A stretch of 64,000 nucleotides of DNA from Agapetus fuscipes. Lineage: Eukaryota > Arthropoda > Insecta > Trichoptera > Glossosomatidae. The notes under the pieces are model-generated. The model saw only the letters and a program-made list of their open reading frames with translations, was not told the origin of the DNA and did not search any database. Location of the stretch: the NCBI GenBank assembly GCA_951799405.1, contig OX637334.1:6262001-6326000 (forward strand), given 5' to 3'. Below are positions 4,757 through 36,904 of this stretch, piece by piece; within the stretch, counting starts at the first letter, position 1, and each line of letters opens with the position of its first letter. Both the position numbers and the translations under genes were made by a program.

Positions 4757-4759
4757 AAT

Positions 4760-4881
4760 GCCAACGACACGCGGTGTATCTACCTGAGCGGGCACCCATC
4801 CAAGTAGCATCCGCGCCCAATGTTGCTTAACTTCGGTGATCTGATGAGAACCGGTGCTTTCAACATGGTATTGTCGTTGAC
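4760..4881 (-). rRNA. 5S rRNA-derived sequence, probable pseudogene
   Basis: The minus strand reads as a 5S rRNA from end to end: GTCAACGACAATACCATGTT, then CACCGGTTCTCATCAGATCA, CCGAAGTTAAGCAACATTGG, GCGCGGATGCTACTTGGATG and a terminal GTGTCGTTGGC. The conserved internal promoter region (GATCACCGAAGTTAAGCAAC) is preserved. The distal stem region has extra and altered bases relative to typical insect 5S and the total is about 122 nt, so it is likely a pseudogene or a retroposed copy. About 3 nt separate it from the 5' end of a SINE-B in the same orientation, suggesting a 5S/tRNA-SINE chimera. A 5S-derived SINE head is the alternative. Confidence 0.8.
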
Positions 4882-14507: not shown

Positions 14508-15180
14508 GAGAAATGCGAGAAAATTGAGATAAGACTGAATGAAAAAAGAGTGGAGGTCGTGAAAGAATTTGATTATCTGGGAAGCAAGTTTGAGTCGAAT
14601 GCGAAATTGACGAAATAATTGGAAAAGCGCGCTAGTAGAGGAAGAAGTGTAATGGAAACGATTGGAAGAATTGCAAGAAATAGGAAACTTACGAAGAATA
14701 TGAGATCGGCGGTCCACAATGGCATATTGGTTGGTGGAAGTGAGGCTTAATGAATGTGAGCTGAGTAAAGTATGTAAGTACGGTTGAAATGGCTTACCTG
14801 AGAGCAATGGCTGGAAAGACACTGAGTGATAGAGTACGTAATGCTTGAGTGATGAACGAGTGTGGTATAAAAGAGAATATGAGAATGAAAGTACAAAAAA
14901 GTACGATGAGATGGTTCAGACATCTTGAAAGAAAGGATGATGAACAACTAACGAAGAAAGTGTACAAAGGAAATGTCAGAGGAAAGCGCAGAAAGGGATG
15001 GCTGAGGAAAGAATGGTTAGACCAAATAGGTGAGATTGCGAAAGAATGGATTCTGCAGAGTGAGAATAAGAGAAGAGTATGTATGAAAAAGGTGATGACA
15101 GCAAAAAGTGGAGGCGCATCTGCGGAGGTACCGGCCACCCCTAATGAAACGGTGGCAGGATACAGTACAGTACAGTACTG
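14508..15180 (+). pseudogene. Decayed LINE, RT C-terminus
   Basis: With stops and shifts, the + strand encodes a tail typical of insect LINE ORF2: 'FDYLGS' (14568 onwards), a 'SRGRS' and 'NRKLTKNMRSAV' segment, then in one frame 'MRWFRHLERKDDEQLTKKVY' (14907 onwards) and 'RRKGWLRKEWLDQIGEI'. The sequence ends in a 'tacagtacagta' microsatellite at 15162-15178, like other tails of this family at 38.9, 39.9 and 63.4 kb. RTE-like classification is tentative. Confidence 0.75.
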
Positions 15181-16217
15181 AGGTCAACTTGATACTTCTT
15201 TCTCTTGGTATTGATGGTGCACTCCTTGCGTGGTTTTCGAGCTATCTTGCTGAAAGGGAACTTAGGGTTTGTGTGTCGGGCGTTGTTTCATCTCCTTTTT
15301 TGGCGAAGGGCGGTGTGCCGCAGGGCTCACATCTCGGACCCATTTTGTTTAATATATTTGTCAATGATCTCCTGAGCGGGTTTGACGGGGTGAGATTTGT
15401 CATGTTTGCTGATGACTTGAAAATTTACAGAGTGGTTAACTGTATTGGTGACTGCGAGATATTACAAAGAAATATTGACGTGCTTTATGACTGGTGTGTG
15501 AAGAATGATTTAACTTTAAACATAGAAAAATGTCAAGTAATGCGTTTCCACAAAATTAAGAATCCCACGGTGTACCCTTACTCGATTGATGGTACACAGC
15601 TTATGTCGGTTGCGCAAATCAAAGATTTGGGAGTATTGTTGGACGCGGGATTAACATTTGTACCACACATAAAGGCAACTGTGGATAGGGCACTCAGAAC
15701 ATTAGGATTTTCCTTACGACTGTGTGAAAATTTTTATAACGTGCACACCTTTATTTATATTTTTACAAGTTTGGTGAGGCCATTGCTGGAGTATAACTCC
15801 GTGTTGTGGTCTCCTCACTACCAGGTACATATACGTAGTATAGAAAAGGTACAAAACAAACTACTTCGCTTTATCAACTTCAAACTCGGAATACCCATCT
15901 CGGATATCAATTATAACCAACTCCGAGAATCGTATAAACTTGCACCGCTCTCGGCTCGGAGAAGTGCTGCTGACATGGTTTTTCTATACAAACTCATTAA
16001 TGGCTTGACCGACGCGCCCCAACTCCTATCAAAAATTAATTTCCGTGTCCCAATAAGGAACACGCGTAACGTGGATACTTTTGATGTGGCAGACTGTGCC
16101 GTGAACTACCAGTATTACTCGCCTTTTCAGCGACTGCCCAGGGAGGCGAACAAGCTGGAGGTTGATATTTTCTCCACGGGATTCTATACATTTAAAAAAA
16201 AAAAAAATAGTATGTAG
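15181..16217 (+). pseudogene. 5'-truncated LINE RT, jockey/CR1-like
   Basis: This open frame encodes the second half of a non-LTR reverse transcriptase. Visible motifs are GVPQGSHLGPILFNIFVNDL (RT motif B region), then MFADDLKIY (catalytic F-A-D-D), DWCVKNDLTLNIEKC and DLGVLLDAGL, then the thumb segment 'SLVRPLLEYNSVLW'. The endonuclease and the first half of the RT are missing, and the match starts abruptly next to the previous LINE's microsatellite. The long ORF that appears to begin upstream at 15108 is therefore a chance fusion of two elements. The frame ends in an A run (16190-16208). The catalytic motif is intact, but the copy is dead on arrival by truncation. Confidence 0.85.
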
Positions 16218-23385: not shown

Positions 23386-25807
23386 TTAGACAGACGAGTT
23401 CTCGCCATAGCTAGCACAAAACTTTGAAAAAGCCCCAAAGTTAGATTTGTTGGCCACAAAGTCCGCATATCCGATCGGGCCGATGGCCGGTCTGACAGCG
23501 TTGAAGAGCGCCTCACGACCAGGCTGCAAGGCTTCGCAGTCCCACAGGATGTGTCGCACATCCTGCAGCGTCGCTCCGCACTCACAACCCGACCCCCTTG
23601 AGAGGCCAAGCTGGAAGAGCCTGGCCCTAAATTTACCGTGACCAGTCAAGAACTGACTGGTCCAATGGTCCGGGACCAACCAAGGAGCCTCGTATCTCTC
23701 ACGGACCGAGGGAAAGAAAGAAAAGGTGGTTCTGCCTTTGTCGGAGGAATCCCATCGTTTTTGCCACACGCGGAGAGCCATAAGCACAACCAGTTTCCGA
23801 GTTCCAGAGGATATTCCTCGGGTGGGGGGATCAATGCTATCTTCGCCGATAGTAGCGGTGAGGCCGCGTCTCAAAAGACTTATGGCGTTGGCAACCTGGA
23901 GGTGAAGATCCAGAGGAAGGACACCGGCAAGAACGGGGAGACAGTCCGTTGACGCGGATCTGTACGCCTTGGTGAGCAAGCGGAGAGATAATCTCTGGCC
24001 GGAAAGGATGACACGCCGCTGTAGACTCAAAAGGCTCTTATCAGCCCAGCAGCCGGCTGCGTAGAGTGCTGTTCCGATGAAGGTTGCCTGATACAAGATA
24101 CGGAGTGAACGACCTCTAAGTCCCCAAGTGACGTGAGAGAGCCTAGCAACCTTGCCGAAGGCGCCATTACCCTTCTGGATAATGCGCTTTGCGTGTTCGA
24201 CGAAAGATAGATTACCGTCCAAGGTAACTCCAAGGTAAGTTACTGCTTGGGACAGTTTCACTCTGGAGCCCTCGAAATCGATAATAGGGGGGCGAGCAGG
24301 ACTGAGACGACCCTTGAGGAGGATGGCCTCGGTTTTGTGGGGGGCAAAGGAGAGTTTATTGCGTGTACCCCAGGAGTGGATAGCTTGCAGGGCAAGTTTA
24401 GCCGATGATTCGAGGGAACTTCTGCTGTTCGCCTCAACAGTGAGGAGGGCGTCATCGGCATATGCGCGCATTTCACAGCCGGAAGGAAGTGGTAGTGATA
24501 AGAGGTCATCGAAGAGCACATTCCAGAGCATAGGGCCTAGGACAGATCCCTGGGGGCAGCCCCGTGTAATGTCTCGGACGATGATATTTGGGCCCGCATC
24601 AAAGATGATGCTGCGCTCCGAAAGGTAGCTGGCAATGGAAGCATAAAGGTTGCCAGGGACCTGTCGAAGTCTAAGCTTCGCAAGTACCATGGGCCACCAT
24701 GCGCCATCAAAGGCACCAGATATGTCAAGCATCACTGCAAGGACATACTTGCAGCGGGAGGCCTGAACAGCAGCAAGGACAGAGCGGATGGCATCCTCGG
24801 TGGAGATGCCGGGCCTAAAACCGAATTGATGACACGATATGGGGAAACCGGCTGTTTTGAAGTGAAACTCGATTCGAGAAGCGATGAGCTTTTCAAGCAC
24901 TTTGCCGAAAACGGGCAATAGAGAGATAGGGCGATATGCCTTAGGATCAGTCGGGGGCTTAGAGGTGAATTTGGGGATAACCTTGAGGAGGCCCGTCTTC
25001 CAGCATCGCGGGAAGACGCCCAGTCGAAGACATTCTGAAAAGAGTGAGCAGATGTCGTTCGGCGCAACAGCCCAAGCCGCCTTGGCAATTAAATTGTCGA
25101 TGCGGTCAGGGCCGGGCGCTTTACGTGTTGTCAGCCCACAAAAAATTTTGTTGAGTTCCTCCACGGATGGCAGGGTGGAGGAGGGAACATTCATGGGAAG
25201 AGCCGTAACACGGCGGATTTGAAGGTCGTGGTCCGTGTCCGCCTCAGGCTCATCCCGGGAAAGGAGCGAGTCAAGAAATGCGCCGGCGGTTTCCGCCAGC
25301 GAGCTCGTGACCACCCCGCTCCCAGGAGCCCTAATACCGCATAACACGCCACCCATCGGAGTGGTGTGAGCCACTGAGCGATAGGCAGCGCCCCATGGGT
25401 CCGGGTTAGCCGAGGCTGTGACGAATTCCCGCCAAGATTCTCTCTTAGCTACGAGGAGTTTCCTCTTGTAGCCAGAGATCCTCCCGCGCACGGAACGTCT
25501 AAGGAACTCAACAGGAGACATGCCATACATAATGTAAAAGTCAGTGGATGAGCAGTGAGAGCATGAGGAAGGAGCTTGACTCGATATAACTCTAGGAACA
25601 ACATTTAAAGACTCGATATAAAGCAAGGTTTCGTGGATTTGTGCAGGTGGGAGGCCACAGGGACACTCCCGGCCGGCAACCGTGTTTCGCAGGTCGCGAC
25701 GCAGCCTGTTCACACTAGCCTTCAGCCGAGAGAGCTCCTCAGTCCACCATATAGCAGAGCGGGGACCCCTACGGGGACCACGCCGACCCAGAACATCCGC
25801 AGAAGTG
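23386..25807 (-). pseudogene. R1-clade LINE ORF2, 5'-truncated but open RT frame
   Basis: A long open frame covers the RT and C-terminal domains of an R1-type non-LTR retrotransposon. In order: 'AIWWTEELSRLK' at the 5' edge; RKAPGPDRIDN (RT N-terminal motif); KAYRPISLLPVFGKVLEKL; HQFGFRPGISTEDAI; 'AVMLDISGAFDGAWW'; RGCPQGSVLGPMLWN; the catalytic YADD near 24451-24462; and a C-terminal C-x-C-x8-H-x4-C knuckle (23.54-23.59 kb). The frame has no stop across about 800 codons, but it has no start: it meets a TAA next to 25807 and lacks the apurinic-like endonuclease domain and ORF1. The GTG near 25713 is simply the first alternative start inside the truncated frame. R1 family elements often target rDNA, but no 28S sequence is seen here. 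Its GC content is clearly above its surroundings, suggesting a fairly young insertion. Confidence 0.9.
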
Positions 25808-28734: not shown

Positions 28735-29097
28735 AAAGATGTCCAGTCGGTAGCTCAGTTGGTAGAGTGCTTGCATTACATGCCGAGAGCTCGGGTTCCG
28801 TGCCACGACAAAATATCCACGCGTCATTTTGGCGCTGGACATTATGTCGGTGAACATTTTGTTAAGTGGAAATTTTGTTACGGGGACATTTTGTCGTGGA
28901 GCCCTCGCGTTCGAATCCCACTGAGGGGCATCAGAAATGATTTCACGTGTCGGAGTCTTATTACCAACCCAAAATAAAATAACAGCAAGGTTTCGTCAGA
29001 CTTTACAAAAAATAAGTACCCGCCCTGTCAGAAACTAGGAAGCTTTATCTAGAGGGATAAGCGTAAAACCGTCCCCTTACCTGTCAAATAAATAGAT
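28735..29097 (+). mobile_element. SINE family A interrupted by a palindrome
   Basis: The head at 28741-28795 (TAGCTCAGTTGGTAGAGTGC) is cut just before the B box. The B box and rest resume at about 28903 (GTTCGAATCCCACTGAGG) and run to 29097. The intervening ~105 bp are a separate palindromic insert. Confidence 0.75.
28796..28902. mobile_element. Small palindromic insert inside a SINE
   Basis: Starts CCACGACAAAATATCC and ends GGACATTTTGTCGTGG, so the termini are inverted repeats. The middle has further 'cattttgt' phrases. A short SINE piece around the B box seems duplicated at the edges. Confidence 0.65.
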
Positions 29098-29172
29098 TCC
29101 ACTCCTCGGTGGGATACGAACCCGAGCTCCCGGCATGTAATGCAAACACTCTACCAACTGAGCTTACGACCG
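29098..29172 (-). mobile_element. SINE family A, tRNA-like head only
   Basis: The minus strand reads TAAGCTCAGTTGGTAGAGTG to GGGTTCGTATCCCACCG. It faces the preceding + strand copy. Confidence 0.7.
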
Positions 29173-29717
29173 AAGTATAAAATACAAAATAATATAAAAG
29201 CATAATTTAATGTTATTTTAAAAATGAACAAGCATTCCCTTCATAGCCAAGAGTCGTTATAAATTGTTCAAAACATAGATTTCCGTTTCTTTTTTATTAT
29301 TTTTTGGGTTCAAATAACTGCTAGTCGATTTCCTTTAACATTTTTCAATACTTGCCCCGGAATCTGGCACACAATATGAGAAGTTGCCTACGGATAAAGT
29401 GCATTTGCAAATGTGGCACTGCAAACTCGAATACAGTGCAAAAGTTTTGCACTTTTTTGTGTCGTCTACGGAAACTTGTGGCAGCTTATTTCGCGTTGTA
29501 AATTTTTGATAAATTGCAAATTTTCTGACATAAATTCTTTTGCTTATTTGGCTTGTCATAAGTTGAACAGTAGCTTTGAAATCATTATTCTATTTGGTAT
29601 TTTCAGTGAACTGCTCTCGGTGAAATTTTCTAAGTTTTATGGCAGCTGTATATTTTGGATAGCGCAATACGGAAGTGTAAATCGAAGAACAAAAATCCTT
29701 AATTACATATAAAATAT
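29173..29717. other. No recognised feature
   Basis: Left flank of the Gypsy element. Short ORFs only. Confidence 0.4.
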
Positions 29718-30147
29718 TGTTATGTAAATATAAATATTGAAATAAGTATGGGTAGTTATAGTGTTATGTAAATAAAATATTGAAATAAGTATGGATAGTT
29801 ATAATTATAGGAATACTGTATTGCATTGGTAGGTAGGATTTTGGTTGTATCTCTAGGTAGTACGTGAAGCGTCGAGAAGTAATAATTACTCTGGAACCGT
29901 CTGGCGACTTTAGTTCTGGATCATACTGCTCTGAAGAGTATAAAGGTGCGAATGGCCTGCAGAGCGGGCCAGTATCATAGCGACTAATAAACACATCGAA
30001 GCCATCTGATCAGTGAACCGAAACCAAGTAGAATAATCGAGAAAGTAGTGTGAAAATAAATATTGTAACAGTGTAAAATAAATAAGTTTTAAAGGAGACC
30101 TGTGTATTTTTAATTTGGAAAGACAATTGAACCCTAATTTCGTAACA
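29718..30147 (+). repeat. 5' LTR of the Gypsy element
   Basis: Starts TGTTATG, ends CGTAACA. The first ~90 bp hold a tandem duplication of a 43-bp unit, also present in the 3' LTR. In the second unit it lacks one T relative to the 3' LTR. Confidence 0.97.
29939..29944 (+). promoter_or_regulatory. Candidate TATA box in 5' LTR
   Basis: TATAAA within 'agagtataaaggtgcg', about 210 bp before the LTR end. The same motif occurs at 36635-36640 in the 3' LTR. Likely Pol II promoter by position; not proven. Confidence 0.45.
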
Positions 30148-30815
30148 ATTGGCGTCAGGTGCGGAATTGTCAAGAAAAATTAAGATCTTCTGTCTAAAAA
30201 TAAATAAAATAAATTAAATAGTGTTAAAATGAACTTTATTCAAATTGAACTTTGTGTGAACTGACTTTTGTGAAAACAAGTGTTTAAATAAATTTTTGTT
30301 AAAAGAAAAGACGCAAAAGCAAGTTGCTTATAAATTCTGGAACATCATATGGAACATAATTCTGGACATAACATAATGACTATTTTACCGCATTGAGAAA
30401 GTCATCAAATTGGACCATAGTTTTTTTATTATTGTGTGTGATTAAAAAAATAAAATAAATAAATAAAAATCTTGAAAAATATTACAAAAGAACGTTCCAG
30501 ATTCATCGAGAAAAAGTTTTTGAATAACTGTGCTTCGTTTACAAGTGTGTGAATGTACATTAAGTACCTACCTGTGTGTTGGAGAGACTTGAGACGAAAT
30601 AAATAATTATGTACTATCAGACATTATTATGTTAAAAATATTGGTGATTTAAAAATAAATATAAAAAAAGACAGTACCTACCAATCAGTGTTATCAGATA
30701 AATTATTATTTTGCTAAAGTACGTATTCAAAACAGCTATATATATAAAACTCAAAACTTGTATTAAATAAATTTGAAAATATTTTTGTTTTGACGTAAAT
30801 TAAAAAAAAAAAAAA
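30148..30815 (+). other. Gypsy leader with primer binding site
   Basis: Directly after the LTR, 'TGGCGTCAGGTGCGGAA' starts at about 30150 and is the expected place for the tRNA primer site, beginning TGG as usual. I cannot name the tRNA. The remaining ~640 bp are AT-rich and non-coding. Confidence 0.6.
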
Positions 30816-32192
30816 ATGGCAACTAAAGTGAACGTCAAGGACCTCAAAGTCACTGAGCTTAAAAATGAGCTTCTGGAGAGGGACCTGGAGACCTCAGGAG
30901 GAAAGGCAGCCTTACAAGCACGCCTCATAGAGGCCTTGGAACAGTCAGGCGAAGACCCGGCATATTTTGTCATGGCGTCTGGAGGGGACCGCGCCTTGGA
31001 CGAGCTAAATATCAGCATCAACAGTAACCTGACAGGACTGAAGACTGAGATGGCTGACAACGCCAAGACCGTGAAGGAGGACCTGACCGGGCTGGAGGAG
31101 AAGATGGCTGACAATGCCAAGACCCTGGAGGAGAAGATGGCTGACAACGCCAAGACCCTGCAGGAGAACCTGTCGGACCTGAAAGTGGAGATGGCTGAAA
31201 ACGCCAAGGCTCTGCAGGAAGACCTCTCCACCATGAAGGAAGACCTCGCCAACATGAAAGAGAAGATGAGCGAGAATCTCACAACCCTGAAGGGAGAAAT
31301 GGAGGAGAAGATGACAGCCCTGAAGGGGGAAATGGAGACTCGGATGTCAAATCTGGAGGTACATCTGCGTGCCGAGCTGACCGACAAGGGCCAGATGGAG
31401 TCCACCAGAATATCCCCCAAAGGCCTTCACGACGAGACCGACCAGGGATGTTCAACTCCAACCAGGATCACAAGAGGGGATGATGACCCTTCCCTAGCCA
31501 AGCACAACCTCCCAACCTTCGACGGGAAGACGTCGTGGGAGGAATACTTGACCCTCTTTGAGACGGCTGCCATGATGGGAGCCTGGAGCCAGCAGAAGAA
31601 GGCTTCGGTTCTCAGCCTGTCGCTCCGAGGAGACGCTCTCAGGGTTCTGCAGGCCATACCCCTGGACAACCGTGGTGACTTTGGGCAGCTGAAGCAGCGC
31701 TTGGATATGCGCTATGGCCACAAGTGCCTGGAGCAGCTGTACAAGTCGCAGCTGAACACAAGGGTGCAGAAGCCCAACGAGAGCCTCCAGGAGTTTGAAA
31801 TGGACATCGCCCGCCTGGTACGAGACGCTTACCCGACAGCCTCCGACGACATCTGTGAGAGCTTGGCAGTGGACAAGTTCCTAAATGGATTGCGGGAATG
31901 GGAGACGCAACAAGCCGTAAAACTGGCCCATCCCAAGGCTTTGAACGAGGCGCTCAGCCAAGCTCTCGAGTTTGAGGCTGTCAAACAGTCCATCAGGGGC
32001 CACGCCAGGGTTCGTGCAGTCGAGGCAGAGGAGGTCAAGCTACCTACAACCGAGGAGCTAATTGAAAAAGTGCTGGAACGTCTGAGACCTCGAAGACGAG
32101 ACCCACGCTGCTGGAACTGCGGACAGCTGGGCCACCTTAGCACCAAGTGTCCCAAGCCTCAGAAACCCAGAAAACAGGCTGCGGAAAACTAG
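30816..32192 (+). CDS. Gag-like polyprotein with SAP motif, coiled coil and zinc knuckle
   Basis: Structural protein of the retrotransposon, 458 residues. Residues ~7-41 (LKVTELKNELLERDLETSGG, then a K-x-x-L-x-x-R-L-I pattern) look like a SAP domain, a DNA-binding helix-extended-loop-helix. Residues ~65-200 are a long predicted coiled coil rich in 'MADNAKT' repeats, which seem to have expanded by internal duplication. From ~231 (LPTFDGKTSWEEYLTLFETA) follows the capsid-like region usual in Gypsy Gag. Residues ~432-445 form a CCHC knuckle, C-x2-C-x4-H-x4-C (CWNCGQLGHLSTKC), for RNA binding. The ATG at 30816 follows an A run and is the first in frame. The stop overlaps the start of pol. The frame is intact. 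SAP in Gag is known from some retroelements, but its role here is inferred. Confidence 0.92.
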   Translation: MATKVNVKDLKVTELKNELLERDLETSGGKAALQARLIEALEQSGEDPAYFVMASGGDRALDELNISINSNLTGLKTEMADNAKTVKEDLTGLEEKMADNAKTLEEKMADNAKTLQENLSDLKVEMAENAKALQEDLSTMKEDLANMKEKMSENLTTLKGEMEEKMTALKGEMETRMSNLEVHLRAELTDKGQMESTRISPKGLHDETDQGCSTPTRITRGDDDPSLAKHNLPTFDGKTSWEEYLTLFETAAMMGAWSQQKKASVLSLSLRGDALRVLQAIPLDNRGDFGQLKQRLDMRYGHKCLEQLYKSQLNTRVQKPNESLQEFEMDIARLVRDAYPTASDDICESLAVDKFLNGLREWETQQAVKLAHPKALNEALSQALEFEAVKQSIRGHARVRAVEAEEVKLPTTEELIEKVLERLRPRRRDPRCWNCGQLGHLSTKCPKPQKPRKQAAEN

Positions 32193-34774
32193 AAAGGGTT
32201 AATGGGAAGGGGCAACCGTTGACCCACGCTGGAGAGGCCCTGAAATCGGCTGCTACTGTCGCAACCGTGAGAGGAAAAGCCAGCAGCATTTTTATCAATG
32301 GCATAATAGATGGAGTAACTCGTGAACTACTGGTGGACACGGGAGCAACCAGGACAATTCTGAGACGCGACATAGTGGCACGAGGTAAGCAGATTGCACC
32401 AACAAAGTGGTCTCTGCACACCGCCACGGGAGAGTCAGCACAGGTGTATGGGGAGACGATTGCCACCTTCCAAATTGGCAGCACCACTTTTGATCATCGG
32501 ACGTTGGTGGCCAACATTGAAGAAGACGTTATATTGGGAATGGACATACTGGACAGATTTGGGTGCAGTTTAAATTTAAAGAAAGGGTCCATTAAAATTG
32601 GAAATGAAGAAGTCATCCTGCAAAGACGGAAAGAACTGGCTGCACGTGTTATCCTAGCCAAGAATACCGAAGTGAAGGGGCGATCCGAGATGATAGTGAG
32701 TGCCCGCCTGGATTCCAGTAGTACAAATGACCAAATCTGTATGATAGAACCGGAGAACATGGACAATGTTAACAAAGGAGTCATGGTGGCAAGAACAGTG
32801 ATTCGCGCAAAGGAGACGACCATTCCTGTCAAGATCATGAATGTGAACAGCTACCCAGTTAAAATGAATGAAGGTTTTGTTTTGGGCAGATGTGAGAGGA
32901 TAACTTCCATTGTGCAACAGATGACAAACATGTCATGCGAAGGAAACAAATTGTCAACACAATTGGAAGCCCTGGTCCACGACGCTTCCCAAGGTCTAAC
33001 CGAGGAAAACAAACGGAGAGTGAGGAGTTTGATCTGCCGCTACCAGAACATTTTCGAGGACTCTAATGGCCGTCTGGGAAGAACCAAGGTAGTGCGACAT
33101 AGCATAGACACCGGAGAAGCGAGACCAATAAAACAGGCTCCAAGAAGACTACCCTTTGCAAAGCGGGAAGAAGCTGACAAGATCATCAAAGACATGAGCA
33201 AGGATGGCATCATAGAACCATCAAGTAGCCCTTGGACATCCCCGGTGGTACTGGTGAAAAAGAAGGATGGTACCACGAGATTTTGTGTGGACTACAGACT
33301 GCTCAACGATGTTACGAAAAAGGATAGTTACCCTCTGCCAAGGATTGACGACACCTTGGACACATTGGCAGGATGCACCATTTTTTCCACATTGGACCTG
33401 AAAAGTGGCTACTGGCAAGTTGAATTGGATGCCAAAGATAAGGAGAAAACTGCATTCTCGACTGGATCTGGACTTTGGCAGTTCACCGTGATGCCATTTG
33501 GCTTATGCAATGCCCCCGCCACGTTTGAAAGGCTGATGGAGAATGTGCTGCGAGGACTGTCATGGGAAACCTGCCTGGTATACTTGGATGACATAATCAT
33601 CCTGGGAAAGGACTTCAACCATCAGTTGAGAAATCTGGAGCAAGTTTTCGGGCGACTACAAGACGCTGGACTGAAGCTCAACCCGAAAAAGTGTAACCTG
33701 TTCAAGAAACAAGTAAATTACCTGGGACACATAGTTTCTCAACGTGGAGTTGAAGTTGACCCTGCCAAAATCAAGGCAGTAAGAGACTGGCCCGTGCTGA
33801 AGGACAAACATGAAACTAGGAGTTTCCTGGGGCTGTGCACTTATTACAGGAGGTTTGTGCCAAGATTTGCGGACATTGCAAAACCGCTCACCAAGCTTAC
33901 GGAAGAAAACACTCGCTTCCATTGGAGTGATTCCTGCGCACAAGCATTTGAAGAGCTTAAGGGAAGATTAACAAGTGCCCCCATCTTGAGCTACCCACGA
34001 AAAGATGGAAAGTTCATCCTGGATACCGACGCTAGTAATGTGGGGATAGGAGGCGTCCTTTCCCAAATACAGGATGGGCATGAGACTGTTCTGGGTTACT
34101 TCAGTAAAGTGCTTTCCAAGCCAGAACGAAATTATTGCGTGACCAGACGAGAGCTTCTTGCCGTGATAAAATCAGTGGAACACTTCCGCAAATACTTGTA
34201 CGGGAGAAAATTCACACTACGGACTGATCATGCTGCACTGGTTTGGCTTCTGAAATTCAAAAACCCAGAAGGGCAAGTGGCTAGATGGATTGAAAGGCTC
34301 CAGGAGTATGATTATGACTCCGAACATAGACCTGGCACGCTTCATCGAAATGCGGATGCATTATCCAGACGACCATGCGCCAGTGACTGCAAACATTGCA
34401 GCAAGATGGAGGACAAGGTAGCAATTGTCCAAAGGACGACCACCGAAGATGAGGACTGGCAAGATGAAAAATTGGCGCAAGACCAACTGAATGATCCGGA
34501 CTTGAAGTATGTGATGGAATGGGCGCGAGAAGGAGAAAGGCCAACCTGGGAAAAACTCGCCCCCTTATCACCAACTGTCAAGGCTTATTGGGCTCAATGG
34601 GGATCCATAGTGATAGAAGGAGGGTTTCTGAAACGAAAGATCGAGAAGGAAGACGGCACACTTAGAAGAAAGCAAACCCTCGTTCCGAGGAGCCGAGTAC
34701 CGGAAATCCTTGGACTGCTGCATGGAGGAACTTCTGGAGGACATCTAGGCGTTAAGAAGAGCTGGAGAAAGTGA
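32147..34774 (+). CDS. Pol: protease, reverse transcriptase, RNase H, start of integrase
   Basis: Overlaps gag by 46 nt in the -1 frame, so expression probably needs ribosomal frameshifting. I saw no canonical slippery heptamer in the overlap. Domains: aspartic protease with LLVDTGATRTIL at residue ~60; RT with ILSxx-type entry 'VKKKDGTTRFCVDYRLLND', FSTLDLKSGYWQV and the catalytic YLDDII at ~478-483; RNase H with LDTDASNVGIGGVLS at ~623 and 'TDHAALVWLLKF'; then the linker and the first half of the integrase zinc finger (H-G-G-T-S-G-G-H). The frame then hits a stop at 34774, and integrase continues in another frame from 34771. This is a single-base frameshift break, not a normal boundary, because the zinc finger is split. 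About 875 residues, as expected for this part of Gypsy pol. Confidence 0.93.
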   Translation: MSQASETQKTGCGKLERVNGKGQPLTHAGEALKSAATVATVRGKASSIFINGIIDGVTRELLVDTGATRTILRRDIVARGKQIAPTKWSLHTATGESAQVYGETIATFQIGSTTFDHRTLVANIEEDVILGMDILDRFGCSLNLKKGSIKIGNEEVILQRRKELAARVILAKNTEVKGRSEMIVSARLDSSSTNDQICMIEPENMDNVNKGVMVARTVIRAKETTIPVKIMNVNSYPVKMNEGFVLGRCERITSIVQQMTNMSCEGNKLSTQLEALVHDASQGLTEENKRRVRSLICRYQNIFEDSNGRLGRTKVVRHSIDTGEARPIKQAPRRLPFAKREEADKIIKDMSKDGIIEPSSSPWTSPVVLVKKKDGTTRFCVDYRLLNDVTKKDSYPLPRIDDTLDTLAGCTIFSTLDLKSGYWQVELDAKDKEKTAFSTGSGLWQFTVMPFGLCNAPATFERLMENVLRGLSWETCLVYLDDIIILGKDFNHQLRNLEQVFGRLQDAGLKLNPKKCNLFKKQVNYLGHIVSQRGVEVDPAKIKAVRDWPVLKDKHETRSFLGLCTYYRRFVPRFADIAKPLTKLTEENTRFHWSDSCAQAFEELKGRLTSAPILSYPRKDGKFILDTDASNVGIGGVLSQIQDGHETVLGYFSKVLSKPERNYCVTRRELLAVIKSVEHFRKYLYGRKFTLRTDHAALVWLLKFKNPEGQVARWIERLQEYDYDSEHRPGTLHRNADALSRRPCASDCKHCSKMEDKVAIVQRTTTEDEDWQDEKLAQDQLNDPDLKYVMEWAREGERPTWEKLAPLSPTVKAYWAQWGSIVIEGGFLKRKIEKEDGTLRRKQTLVPRSRVPEILGLLHGGTSGGHLGVKKSWRK

Positions 34775-35814
34775 AAGAGCGATTTTACTGGATCAACTGC
34801 AGCGAAGACGTCAAAGATTGGTGTCGAAAATGTGTAACCTGTGCAACGGCCAATGGACCGCAAAGGAAAAGGCGAGCACCAATGCGTCAGTACAATGTTG
34901 GCAGCCCCTTTGAAAGAATTGCCATCGACATAGCTGGCCCATTTCCTACAACTGAGAAGGGTAACAAGTACATCATGGTGGTGATGGATTACTTCAGCAA
35001 GTGGGTGGAAGCTTACTCAATCCCTAACCAAGAGGCCGTAACCGTGACTGAAGTTCTAGTTACCGAATTTATCAGCAGGTTTGGCGTACCCCTGGAATTA
35101 CATTCTGATCAGGGAAGGAACTTTGAAGCTGCTATCTTCCAGCAAATGTGTGAGCGGCTAGGGATCTACAAGACCAGGACCACTGCGCTACATCCACAGT
35201 CTGATGGAATGGTGGAAAGGATGAACCGTACCGTGGGGAGGTACTTAGCCAAAGTAGTGTCCAGCCATCAGCGGGACTGGGACCGACATCTGCCTTTGTT
35301 CTTATTGGCTTACCGGTCGGCTGTTCAGGAAACGACGAAGAAGACTCCCAGCAGCATACTGTTTGGGCGAGAAATGCGACTTCCTTGTGATCTCAAATTT
35401 GGCTGCAAACCAGGTGAAGACCTAGCCGGAGAAGACTATGTGACAGACCTTCGCAGGAGGCTGGATGACATCCATGATCAGGTCCGCATGAACATCGGGG
35501 AAGCCAGCGATCAAATGAAGGAGCGCTATGACACCAGAGCTGACAGCATGGGGTACAAAGCTGGTGACTGGGTGTGGCTTTTTGACCCCAAGAGGCGCCA
35601 AGGATACTGTCCGAAACTTCAGCGTTCCTGGGACGGGCCGTACGAGATCTTGGAGCGCATCAACGATGTGGTCTACCGCATAAAAAAGAGACCAAACGGA
35701 AAACCAAGGGTCGTGCACTACAATCGCCTCTCACCATACCTAGGCGATAATGATGACCAACCAGCCCAAAAAAGTACGACAGTGCGTCGCATCCGAAAGA
35801 TCACCAGCCTTTGA
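34771..35814 (+). CDS. Integrase portion of Pol, frameshifted
   Basis: 347 codons open. It carries the C-x2-C half of the zinc finger (WCRKCVTC, residues ~18-24), then the catalytic core with Asp53 (AIDIAGPF), Asp113 (LHSDQGRNF) and Glu149 (DGMVERMNR), i.e. D,D-35-E. The C-terminal part (GDWVWLF, then W-D-G-P-Y-E-I-L, then HYNRLSPY) matches the GPY/F-type module of Gypsy integrases. It joins the upstream pol frame only through the frameshift near 34.77 kb. The ATG at 34771 is therefore an artefact of the break. The end overlaps the macro-domain ORF by 65 nt. Confidence 0.92.
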   Translation: MKERFYWINCSEDVKDWCRKCVTCATANGPQRKRRAPMRQYNVGSPFERIAIDIAGPFPTTEKGNKYIMVVMDYFSKWVEAYSIPNQEAVTVTEVLVTEFISRFGVPLELHSDQGRNFEAAIFQQMCERLGIYKTRTTALHPQSDGMVERMNRTVGRYLAKVVSSHQRDWDRHLPLFLLAYRSAVQETTKKTPSSILFGREMRLPCDLKFGCKPGEDLAGEDYVTDLRRRLDDIHDQVRMNIGEASDQMKERYDTRADSMGYKAGDWVWLFDPKRRQGYCPKLQRSWDGPYEILERINDVVYRIKKRPNGKPRVVHYNRLSPYLGDNDDQPAQKSTTVRRIRKITSL

Positions 35815-36274
35815 GACGTTTTGGGAGAACGCGAAGGCAGGGCAGAAGTTTCGCCATGGAGTGACCACAGAAGTCCACAAGGACTTATTTGAGGTCACTA
35901 GGGACCACACACTGGCATGCAGTGTACCGGAAGATCTAGATATGTCTAGAGGAATTGCACGGGTCTTCCGATACAAATTCGGAGAACCGCAACCCTCGAG
36001 CAGCCCGCAAGGAAGAGCTCTGAGACTACCGAAGGGGCGTCAACAAGCATACTGCCTGGTTGTCCCGGATTCCAGCAACCTGGAAGAGGACTACAAGGCA
36101 TTGTGGGACGGCCTTGTTGAGCTGCGTGACTACATGTTGGAGGATCAGCAGGCGCGTCTGGCAATACCGAAGATGGGTGGCGGCCGCGCTAATCGAGACT
36201 GGCGGATAATCCGGAGTATGATTGAAGCAGTGTTCTCGGGAGTCGGCATCAGCGTCATGGTGTGCTGCGAGTAA
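35750..36274 (+). CDS. Macro-domain-like protein encoded by the Gypsy element (ORF3)
   Basis: 174 residues in the +1 frame relative to integrase, beginning at tandem ATGs (35750, 35753) inside the last 65 nt of pol. From residue ~47 the pattern fits a macro domain of the TARG1/OARD1/Poa1-like kind: 'DLFEVTRDHTLACSVPEDLD', then MSRGIARVFRYKFG (the glycine-turn and helix that contact ADP-ribose), then 'QQAYCLVVPDSS', a 'YKALWDGLVELRDYM' helix, then LAIPKMGGGRANRDW and 'MIEAVFSGVGISVMV'. In TARG1-like enzymes an Asp follows the G-C-G-L motif. Here the aligned residue is Ala (G-G-G-R-A), so hydrolase activity may be lost while binding is retained. It lies in the env position but has no signal peptide or membrane segment. 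The frame is intact. Domain call is by motif reading only; capture from a host gene is an inference. Confidence 0.8.
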   Translation: MMTNQPKKVRQCVASERSPAFETFWENAKAGQKFRHGVTTEVHKDLFEVTRDHTLACSVPEDLDMSRGIARVFRYKFGEPQPSSSPQGRALRLPKGRQQAYCLVVPDSSNLEEDYKALWDGLVELRDYMLEDQQARLAIPKMGGGRANRDWRIIRSMIEAVFSGVGISVMVCCE

Positions 36275-36400
36275 GCGCAGCCGAGAGCCAGTGGGGAGAA
36301 ATCCGTGGACTGCCACTTCTTCCTGACCACAGGGTGTCGACGTGGATCAGCATGCCCCTACCTACACAGAGTCAAGACTGTTCCGGGACGAAACAGTCTA

Positions 36401-36412
36401 GGTGGGGGGTAG
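36401..36412 (+). other. Polypurine tract
   Basis: GGTGGGGGGTAG immediately before the 3' LTR, the expected plus-strand primer site. Confidence 0.75.
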
Positions 36413-36843
36413 TGTTATGTAAATATAAATATTGAAATAAGTATGGGTAGTTATAGTGTTATGTAAATATAAATATTGAAATAAGTATGGATAGTTATAA
36501 TTATAGGAATACTGTATTGCATTGGTAGGTAGGATTTTGGTTGTATCTCTAGGTAGTACGTGAAGCGTCGAGAAGTAATAATTACTCTGGAACCGTCTGG
36601 CGACTTTAGTTCTGGATCATACTGCTCTGAAGAGTATAAAGGTGCGAATGGCCTGCAGAGCGGGCCAGTATCATAGCGACTAATAAACACATCGAAGCCA
36701 TCTGATCAGTGAACCGAAACCAAGTAGAATAATCGAGAAAGTTGTGTGAAAATAAATATTGTAACAGTGTAAAATAAATAAGTTTTAAAGGAGACCTGTG
36801 TATTTTTAATTTGGAAAGACAATTGAACCCTAATTTCGTAACA
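36413..36843 (+). repeat. 3' LTR of the Gypsy element
   Basis: 431 bp, TGTTATG...CGTAACA, nearly identical to the 5' LTR, with the same internal 43-bp duplication. The first difference is in the second repeat unit, the other near 36742. Confidence 0.97.
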
Positions 36844-36904
36844 ATATTTTTTAAATATGTGTCTTAGATCGTAGAGCATAAATTTTAGTTAACAGAACAT
36901 TGTA

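What the first reader, a model, noticed from the sequence alone, without database searches (positions are those of the whole stretch)
35750..36274. Macro-domain ORF carried by a Ty3/Gypsy retrotransposon
Seen: an intact 174-codon ORF after integrase, overlapping it by 65 nt in another frame, inside the LTRs. Its motifs (MSRGIARVFRYKFG, LAIPKMGGG, C-terminal I-S-V-M-V) fit the macro fold of TARG1/OARD1/Poa1-like proteins. Known: macro domains bind ADP-ribose and occur in several RNA viruses, where they counter host ADP-ribosylation; env, dUTPase or chromodomains are the better known Gypsy extras. Inferred: the element captured a host macro domain, perhaps to counter PARP-type defence or process an ADP-ribosylated factor. 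I cannot tell whether this is already described.
Basis: partly seen in the sequence, partly recalled or inferred. Interest (0 to 1): 0.88.

Follow-up and report, generated by a model that had tools for sequence, protein, structure and literature searches.

The report
Macro domain fused to Gypsy integrase
A family of jumping genes, where named mostly from insects, carries a captured ADP-ribose-handling module fused to the enzyme that inserts it into chromosomes, which points to an unsuspected link between these elements and the host's ADP-ribose signals.

Summary

Pols with this tail form one clade. Of 17 full-length related tails, 16 keep TARG1's Lys84 and 15 its Asp125. Three families in this genome, the window's included, lost both, yet dN/dS between two of them is 0.17. 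I think it most likely an ADP-ribose reader that tethers integrase (inferred). A second Gypsy type in the same genome carries a dyad-intact macro domain between RNase H and integrase. Macro ORFs in fish retroviruses are known; ten paper searches showed no Gypsy case.

The parts
29718..30147 (+). 5' LTR (430 nt), preceded by ATAT target duplication at 29714-29717
   Evidence: 429 identities, 1 mismatch, 1 gap to the 3' LTR
30150..30170 (+). likely primer-binding site next to the 5' LTR; tRNA not identified
   Evidence: Position only
30816..32192 (+). gag: SAP domain, coiled-coil repeats, Retrotrans_gag, CCHC knuckle
   Evidence: SAP 33.2 bits, cut-off 23.9; Retrotrans_gag 28.1; zf-CCHC 25.1; tandem repeats
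32147..34774 (+). pol part 1: protease, reverse transcriptase, RNase H, first half of the integrase zinc-binding domain
34771..35814 (+). integrase ORF (second half of the zinc-binding domain, rve core, p58/SH3 C-terminus); out of frame with its neighbours in this copy
   Evidence: in other copies one frame runs through it
35750..36274 (+). the ORF of the finding; TARG1-type macro domain at about 35867-36262 (residues 40-171)
36275..36409 (+). rest of the native Pol frame after this copy's stop codon; CCCH finger at about 36311-36367
   Evidence: the same stretch in P0002 passes the Pfam zf-CCCH cut-off, 21.3 against 20.5 bits
36401..36409 (+). polypurine tract, overlapping the end of the Pol frame
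   Evidence: bases before the 3' LTR
36413..36843 (+). 3' LTR (431 nt), followed by ATAT target duplication at 36844-36847

Best explanation
The ORF is a piece of a Pol polyprotein whose native order is protease - RT - RNase H - integrase - TARG1-type macro domain - CCCH finger, ending at the 3' polypurine tract. A cellular TARG1-type macro domain was captured by the ancestor of one clade of Gypsy elements and has diversified with Pol since (shown by trees; donor unknown). Mechanism (inferred): the module sits where chromoviruses carry a chromodomain and works as a reader. It binds ADP-ribose on chromatin, on a repair factor or on the element's own complex, and so tethers integrase or the cDNA complex, while the CCCH finger contacts nucleic acid. 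In the window's lineage the two TARG1 catalytic residues are gone but the fold and conserved columns around the expected pocket remain under constraint, so there reading rather than erasing would be what is left.
For: Fold: TARG1 by sequence, by structure, and for a dyad-intact relative 42% identity at 1.3 A over 141 columns. Fusion: P0002, 18 of 103 related Pols with a readable integrase end, 111 of 150 own-genome matches with a 1422-residue frame, 28 and 29 of 29 copies read. One clade: RT tree and macro trees. Position next to integrase in the clade, and next to integrase on its other side in a second element type. Constraint after dyad loss: macro dN/dS 0.17 between families A and F (50.3 synonymous, 45.7 nonsynonymous changes; Fisher p 1.8e-13) and 0.10 between family A and an old copy. 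Of 38 columns conserved in at least 15 of 17 related tails, 20 are kept in all three families and 6 lost in all three, the latter including K84 and D125.
Against: No binding, tethering or insertion-preference data. The macro domain evolves faster than integrase (A-F dN/dS 0.17 against 0.033), and the window's macro is among the most diverged (median identity 0.40). Young copy pairs are uninformative or look relaxed (0.33, 0.30, and 1.2 on five changes). Loss of the dyad need not mean loss of hydrolysis: the review PMC7050489 notes that SCO6735, an ALC1-like hydrolase, lacks both residues. Three Pols inside the clade end without a macro domain (P0003, P0020, P0023), so it may be dispensable. 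CCCH is missing by pattern in 8 of 18 macro tails, one of them truncated.
Confidence: 0.45

Rival explanations
1. An active ADP-ribosyl hydrolase: the family removes ADP-ribose from host or element proteins, or from nucleic-acid ends of the element's cDNA or RNA, countering PARP-type modification. The window's lineage is then a derivative that lost or changed the activity.
For: Of 17 full-length related Pol tails 16 keep K84 and 15 keep D125; of 16 fragments chosen from the hits 16 keep K84 and 15 of the 15 readable keep D125. The three elements that lost one or both residues for which medians were computed (window, P0015, P0019) have the three lowest median macro identities (0.40, 0.39, 0.43 against 0.45-0.56). 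The RNase H-macro-integrase type in the same genome keeps both. TARG1 acts on ADP-ribosyl phosphoesters at nucleic-acid ends (passages of PMC7050489).
Against: All IN-tail families read in this genome lack the dyad (A, B, F) and yet fill it with open copies.
Confidence: 0.3
2. An RNA-handling module: macro plus CCCH bind the element's RNA or host RNA (packaging, 3'-end or export), with ADP-ribose binding incidental.
For: CCCH finger above the Pfam cut-off, weak resemblance to CPSF30 fingers (E 0.0085 with PDB 2d9n).
Against: CCCH absent by pattern in 8 of 18 tails while the macro domain is kept; the second element type has the macro without such a tail position.
Confidence: 0.1
3. A passenger: a captured host fragment tolerated at the end of Pol.
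For: Faster evolution than integrase; three clade members without it.
Against: Retention across a clade with 75-80% RT identity and about 50% macro identity; dN/dS 0.17 with dS 0.98; conserved pocket columns; open frames in 111 of 150 listed copies.
Confidence: 0.12
4. A stand-alone third ORF expressed apart from Pol.
For: Intact ATG ORF in this copy.
Against: Fused frame in the other copies read and in relatives; the CCCH finger lies beyond this copy's stop.
Confidence: 0.02

Closest known systems
TARG1/OARD1/C6orf130 (ALC1-like class macro domain)
   Same: Sequence and fold; most related elements keep the Lys84/Asp125 dyad
   Different: Fused to integrase in a retroelement; window lineage lost both residues
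Chromoviruses (Gypsy with a chromodomain at the integrase C-terminus)
   Same: A captured chromatin-type reader module at the same place in Pol (resemblance recalled)
   Different: No chromodomain among the Pfam hits of the integrase ORF; macro and CCCH instead
Fish epsilon-like endogenous retroviruses with macro-domain ORFs (Basta et al. 2009, cited in PMC4977317)
   Same: LTR retroelement with a captured macro domain (passage; the original paper is not held)
   Different: Retroviridae in fish, described there as an additional open reading frame; here Gypsy, in frame with integrase
Accessory domains of LTR elements: bdelloid ORF3 enzymes (PMC5408684), orchid m6A demethylase (PMC9289625), DNMTs (PMC5890265)
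   Same: Host-type enzyme modules kept by retrotransposons (passages)
   Different: No macro domain mentioned in the first two (term searched: 0 occurrences of 'macro')
DarG antitoxin macro domain
   Same: ALC1-like; weak NCBIfam match of P0002 (24.3 bits, cut-off 250)
   Different: Far below cut-off; bacterial toxin-antitoxin partner

Membership tests
Ty3/Gypsy LTR retrotransposon | LTRs with short target duplication, PPT | tested here: met
Ty3/Gypsy LTR retrotransposon | Pol order protease-RT-RNase H-integrase | tested here: met
   (split over ORFs in this copy); one open frame in 111 of 150 listed copies
Macro domain, TARG1 (ALC1-like) class | Macro fold, closest to TARG1 | tested here: met
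   but no Pfam family at E<=1 for this ORF, and Pfam Macro in 10 of 13 cores at E<=0.1
Macro domain, TARG1 (ALC1-like) class | Catalytic Lys84 and Asp125 | tested here: not met
   P and A in the window, P0002 and 29 of 29 copies read; met in 15-16 of 17 related tails
Macro domain, TARG1 (ALC1-like) class | ADP-ribose binding and hydrolysis | not testable with these tools
   Needs protein
CCCH zinc finger | C-x7/8-C-x5-C-x3-H, Pfam PF00642 above cut-off | tested here: met
   P0002 21.3 bits against 20.5; same motif in the window after the stop
Chromovirus | Chromodomain at integrase C-terminus | tested here: not met
   four Pfam families for the integrase ORF, none a chromodomain
Fish epsilon-retrovirus with macro ORF | Retroviridae Pol, macro as additional ORF | tested here: not met
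   Nearest Pols are arthropod Gypsy/412-like where named; macro is in frame with integrase

The most novel reading that the evidence does not exclude
Gypsy elements have twice placed a TARG1-type macro domain beside integrase, once at its C-terminus and once between RNase H and its zinc finger, because ADP-ribose is a cue or obstacle for integration; one lineage then turned the eraser into a pure reader that steers integrase to ADP-ribosylated chromatin.
Probability: 0.25. Interest if true: 0.92.

Novelty: new variant of a known kind. Interest (0 to 1): 0.78.

Why it matters
It links ADP-ribose biology to integrase in a widespread retroelement group, gives natural pairs of dyad-intact and dyad-lost domains, and suggests a second class of chromatin-reader integrases beside chromoviruses. 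It also warns that some insect proteins annotated 'OARD1-like' group with retroelement tails.

Tried and rejected
Single-element queries against viral contigs found nothing; the macro-core alignment found three phage-contig loci with TARG1-like macro domains, not retroelements. A copy-level pN/pS on the 29 copies was dropped: the copies were chosen by protein score, which biases against nonsynonymous change. My first run of that script forgot to turn minus-strand loci and gave wrong counts; one search replaces it (its frame-naive codon list for the window row is meaningless). The tree with the RNase H-macro-integrase cores put them inside the integrase-tail group on a branch of 2.43, next to two near-identical rows and with a composition warning; the AU test does not reject the integrase-tail group as a clade without them (p 0.413), so whether there were two captures is unresolved. 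Sharifi et al. 2013 and Basta et al. 2009 are not held. PMC6338049 was read in its first quarter only, other papers as passages or listings.

Full report
Observation. The ORF at 35750-36274 exists as described inside an LTR element at 29718-36843 with nearly identical LTRs (429 identities, 1 mismatch, 1 gap) and an ATAT target duplication. Gag has a SAP domain, a capsid-type Pfam match and a CCHC knuckle; pol has protease, RT and RNase H; integrase follows in another frame, and its zinc-binding domain is split over two ORFs.

It is the end of Pol, not a third ORF. The only database homologue of the ORF itself is P0002, 98% identical, in which the integrase C-terminus runs into the macro domain and on into a CCCH finger. 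A pol search scored 7654 hits and listed 120. Of these, 103 have a recognisable integrase end; 20 have a tail over 60 residues, 18 of them macro-type and two not (P0023, P0105); 83 have short tails. In the window's own genome (618,241,784 bases) the ORF matches 150 scored places out of 1062 candidates, a lower bound. By my hand count of the list 111 have an open frame of exactly 1422 residues and 123 at least 1400; the window's has 176. Of 29 other copies read, chosen by score, 28 are open from 300 codons upstream through the macro domain and 29 are open past the place of the window's stop into the CCCH finger. Eight LTR pairs were compared: six complete ones show 0, 1, 0, 0, 0 and 0 mismatches (one also has 7 gap columns); two were cut by the fetched stretch. 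So this is a very recent burst of copies, and the window shows a broken one.

History. In an RT tree of 121 rows the macro label needs one change, branch SH-aLRT 97 (quick method, no mixture model). The clade has 27 rows: 19 with macro (window included), five fragments without an integrase end, and three that I set aside beforehand because they have an integrase end but no macro domain (P0003, P0020, P0023). Counted as absences, these add up to three losses or frame breaks. A tree of 55 macro cores that I picked from the hits separates 34 element rows from 21 cellular or unassigned rows at 100/99, and with three phage cores added at 100/100. The donor lineage is unresolved. Named sources are mostly beetle genera (recalled as such): Callosobruchus, Acanthoscelides, Brassicogethes, Aromia, Pyrocoelia, Aquatica, Gonioctena, Molorchus; also a leafhopper, Macrosteles, and one record labelled Erysiphe pulchra. 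Molorchus and Pyrocoelia proteins show the integrase end fused to the macro domain.

Catalytic residues. TARG1 numbering is fixed by the 41-residue spacing of Lys84 and position 125; PMC7050489 writes Glu125, the PDB chain has Asp there. Of 17 full-length related tails, 16 keep K84 and 15 keep D125. The window, P0002 and 29 of 29 copies read have lost both. In the same genome eight read loci of a second family (B: L060-L065, L076, L077) and one of a third (F: L066) show K84 to R or P and D125 to A. These three families group together (99/95 with P0004). The genome also has three probable cellular TARG1-type loci with the dyad intact (39-42% identity to a hoverfly OARD1).

Selection. Nei-Gojobori dN/dS: A-F macro 0.17 (dS 0.98), integrase piece 0.033 (dS 1.83); A against the old copy L074, macro 0.10; B-F macro 0.19 at near-saturated dS 2.24; A-B saturated. 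Young pairs: 0.33 (A-L075, Fisher p 0.053), 0.30 (B-L064), 1.2 (A-L069, one synonymous and four nonsynonymous changes). So the domain is constrained after loss of the dyad, less than integrase. Of 38 columns conserved in at least 15 of 17 tails, 20 are kept in A, B and F, 12 in some, and 6 are lost in all three, among them K84 and D125. That TARG1 Asp20 and the glycine loop contact ADP-ribose is recalled, not from a call.

A second architecture. Nine matches in the genome (L051-L059) are a different Gypsy type, RT-RH 46% identical to the window's, with a dyad-intact TARG1-like macro domain. In the two loci scanned it lies between RNase H (to about residue 448) and the integrase zinc-binding domain (from about 649). 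Its macro cannot be placed securely, so a second capture is suggested by position and RT but not shown.

Mechanism. Shown: fusion, order, single clade, constraint, dyad loss. Inferred: that the tail reads ADP-ribose and tethers integrase, as chromodomains do for chromoviruses. The main rival is an eraser acting on host or element proteins or nucleic-acid ends, which the dyad-intact relatives favour. Absence of the dyad does not exclude hydrolysis, since SCO6735 lacks both (PMC7050489 passages).

Prior work. Ten paper searches listed no Gypsy element with a macro domain. A passage of PMC4977317 says fish epsilon-like retroviral sequences occasionally carry CNPase or macro-domain ORFs, citing Basta et al. 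2009, not held. The library is open-licence papers only, so an earlier report elsewhere, or a Repbase note, is possible. Hence 'new variant of a known kind'.

Noticed in passing
L051-L059 (G000 contigs C143, C12, C30, C147, C6, C21, C14, C1): A second Gypsy type with a dyad-intact TARG1-like macro domain between RNase H and integrase; nine matches in the genome.
   Followed up: partly
P0124, P0127 (Macrosteles), other hits: Insect proteins annotated as OARD1-like or macro-domain proteins group with retroelement tails, not with cellular OARD1; likely pieces of elements or domesticated ones.
   Followed up: partly
L001-L003 (IMG/VR contigs): Phage-type contigs carry a TARG1-like macro gene with the dyad intact.
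   Followed up: no
window 30994-31294: Gag has imperfect tandem repeats coding a coiled-coil-like stretch after a SAP domain.
   Followed up: no
P0016, P0058, P0097: Arthropod-like Gypsy Pols in records labelled Erysiphe pulchra, Fervidobacterium and a Rickettsia endosymbiont; contamination or transfer.
   Followed up: no
P0023: A clade member lacking the macro domain but keeping the tail end, as if the domain had been deleted.
   Followed up: no
window 4759-4881 (-): 5S rRNA match (81.1 bits).
   Followed up: no
window 15108-16217 (+), 23386-25713 (-): Two further reverse-transcriptase ORFs, LINE-like.
   Followed up: no
window 28746-28798 / 29118-29170: Inverted pair of tRNA-like sequences, 92% complementary, perhaps two SINEs.
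   Followed up: no
LTRs, window 29718-29803: A 43-44 nt tandem repeat at the LTR start; aligned LTR pieces of other copies are longer (467-519 nt), so its number may vary.
   Followed up: no
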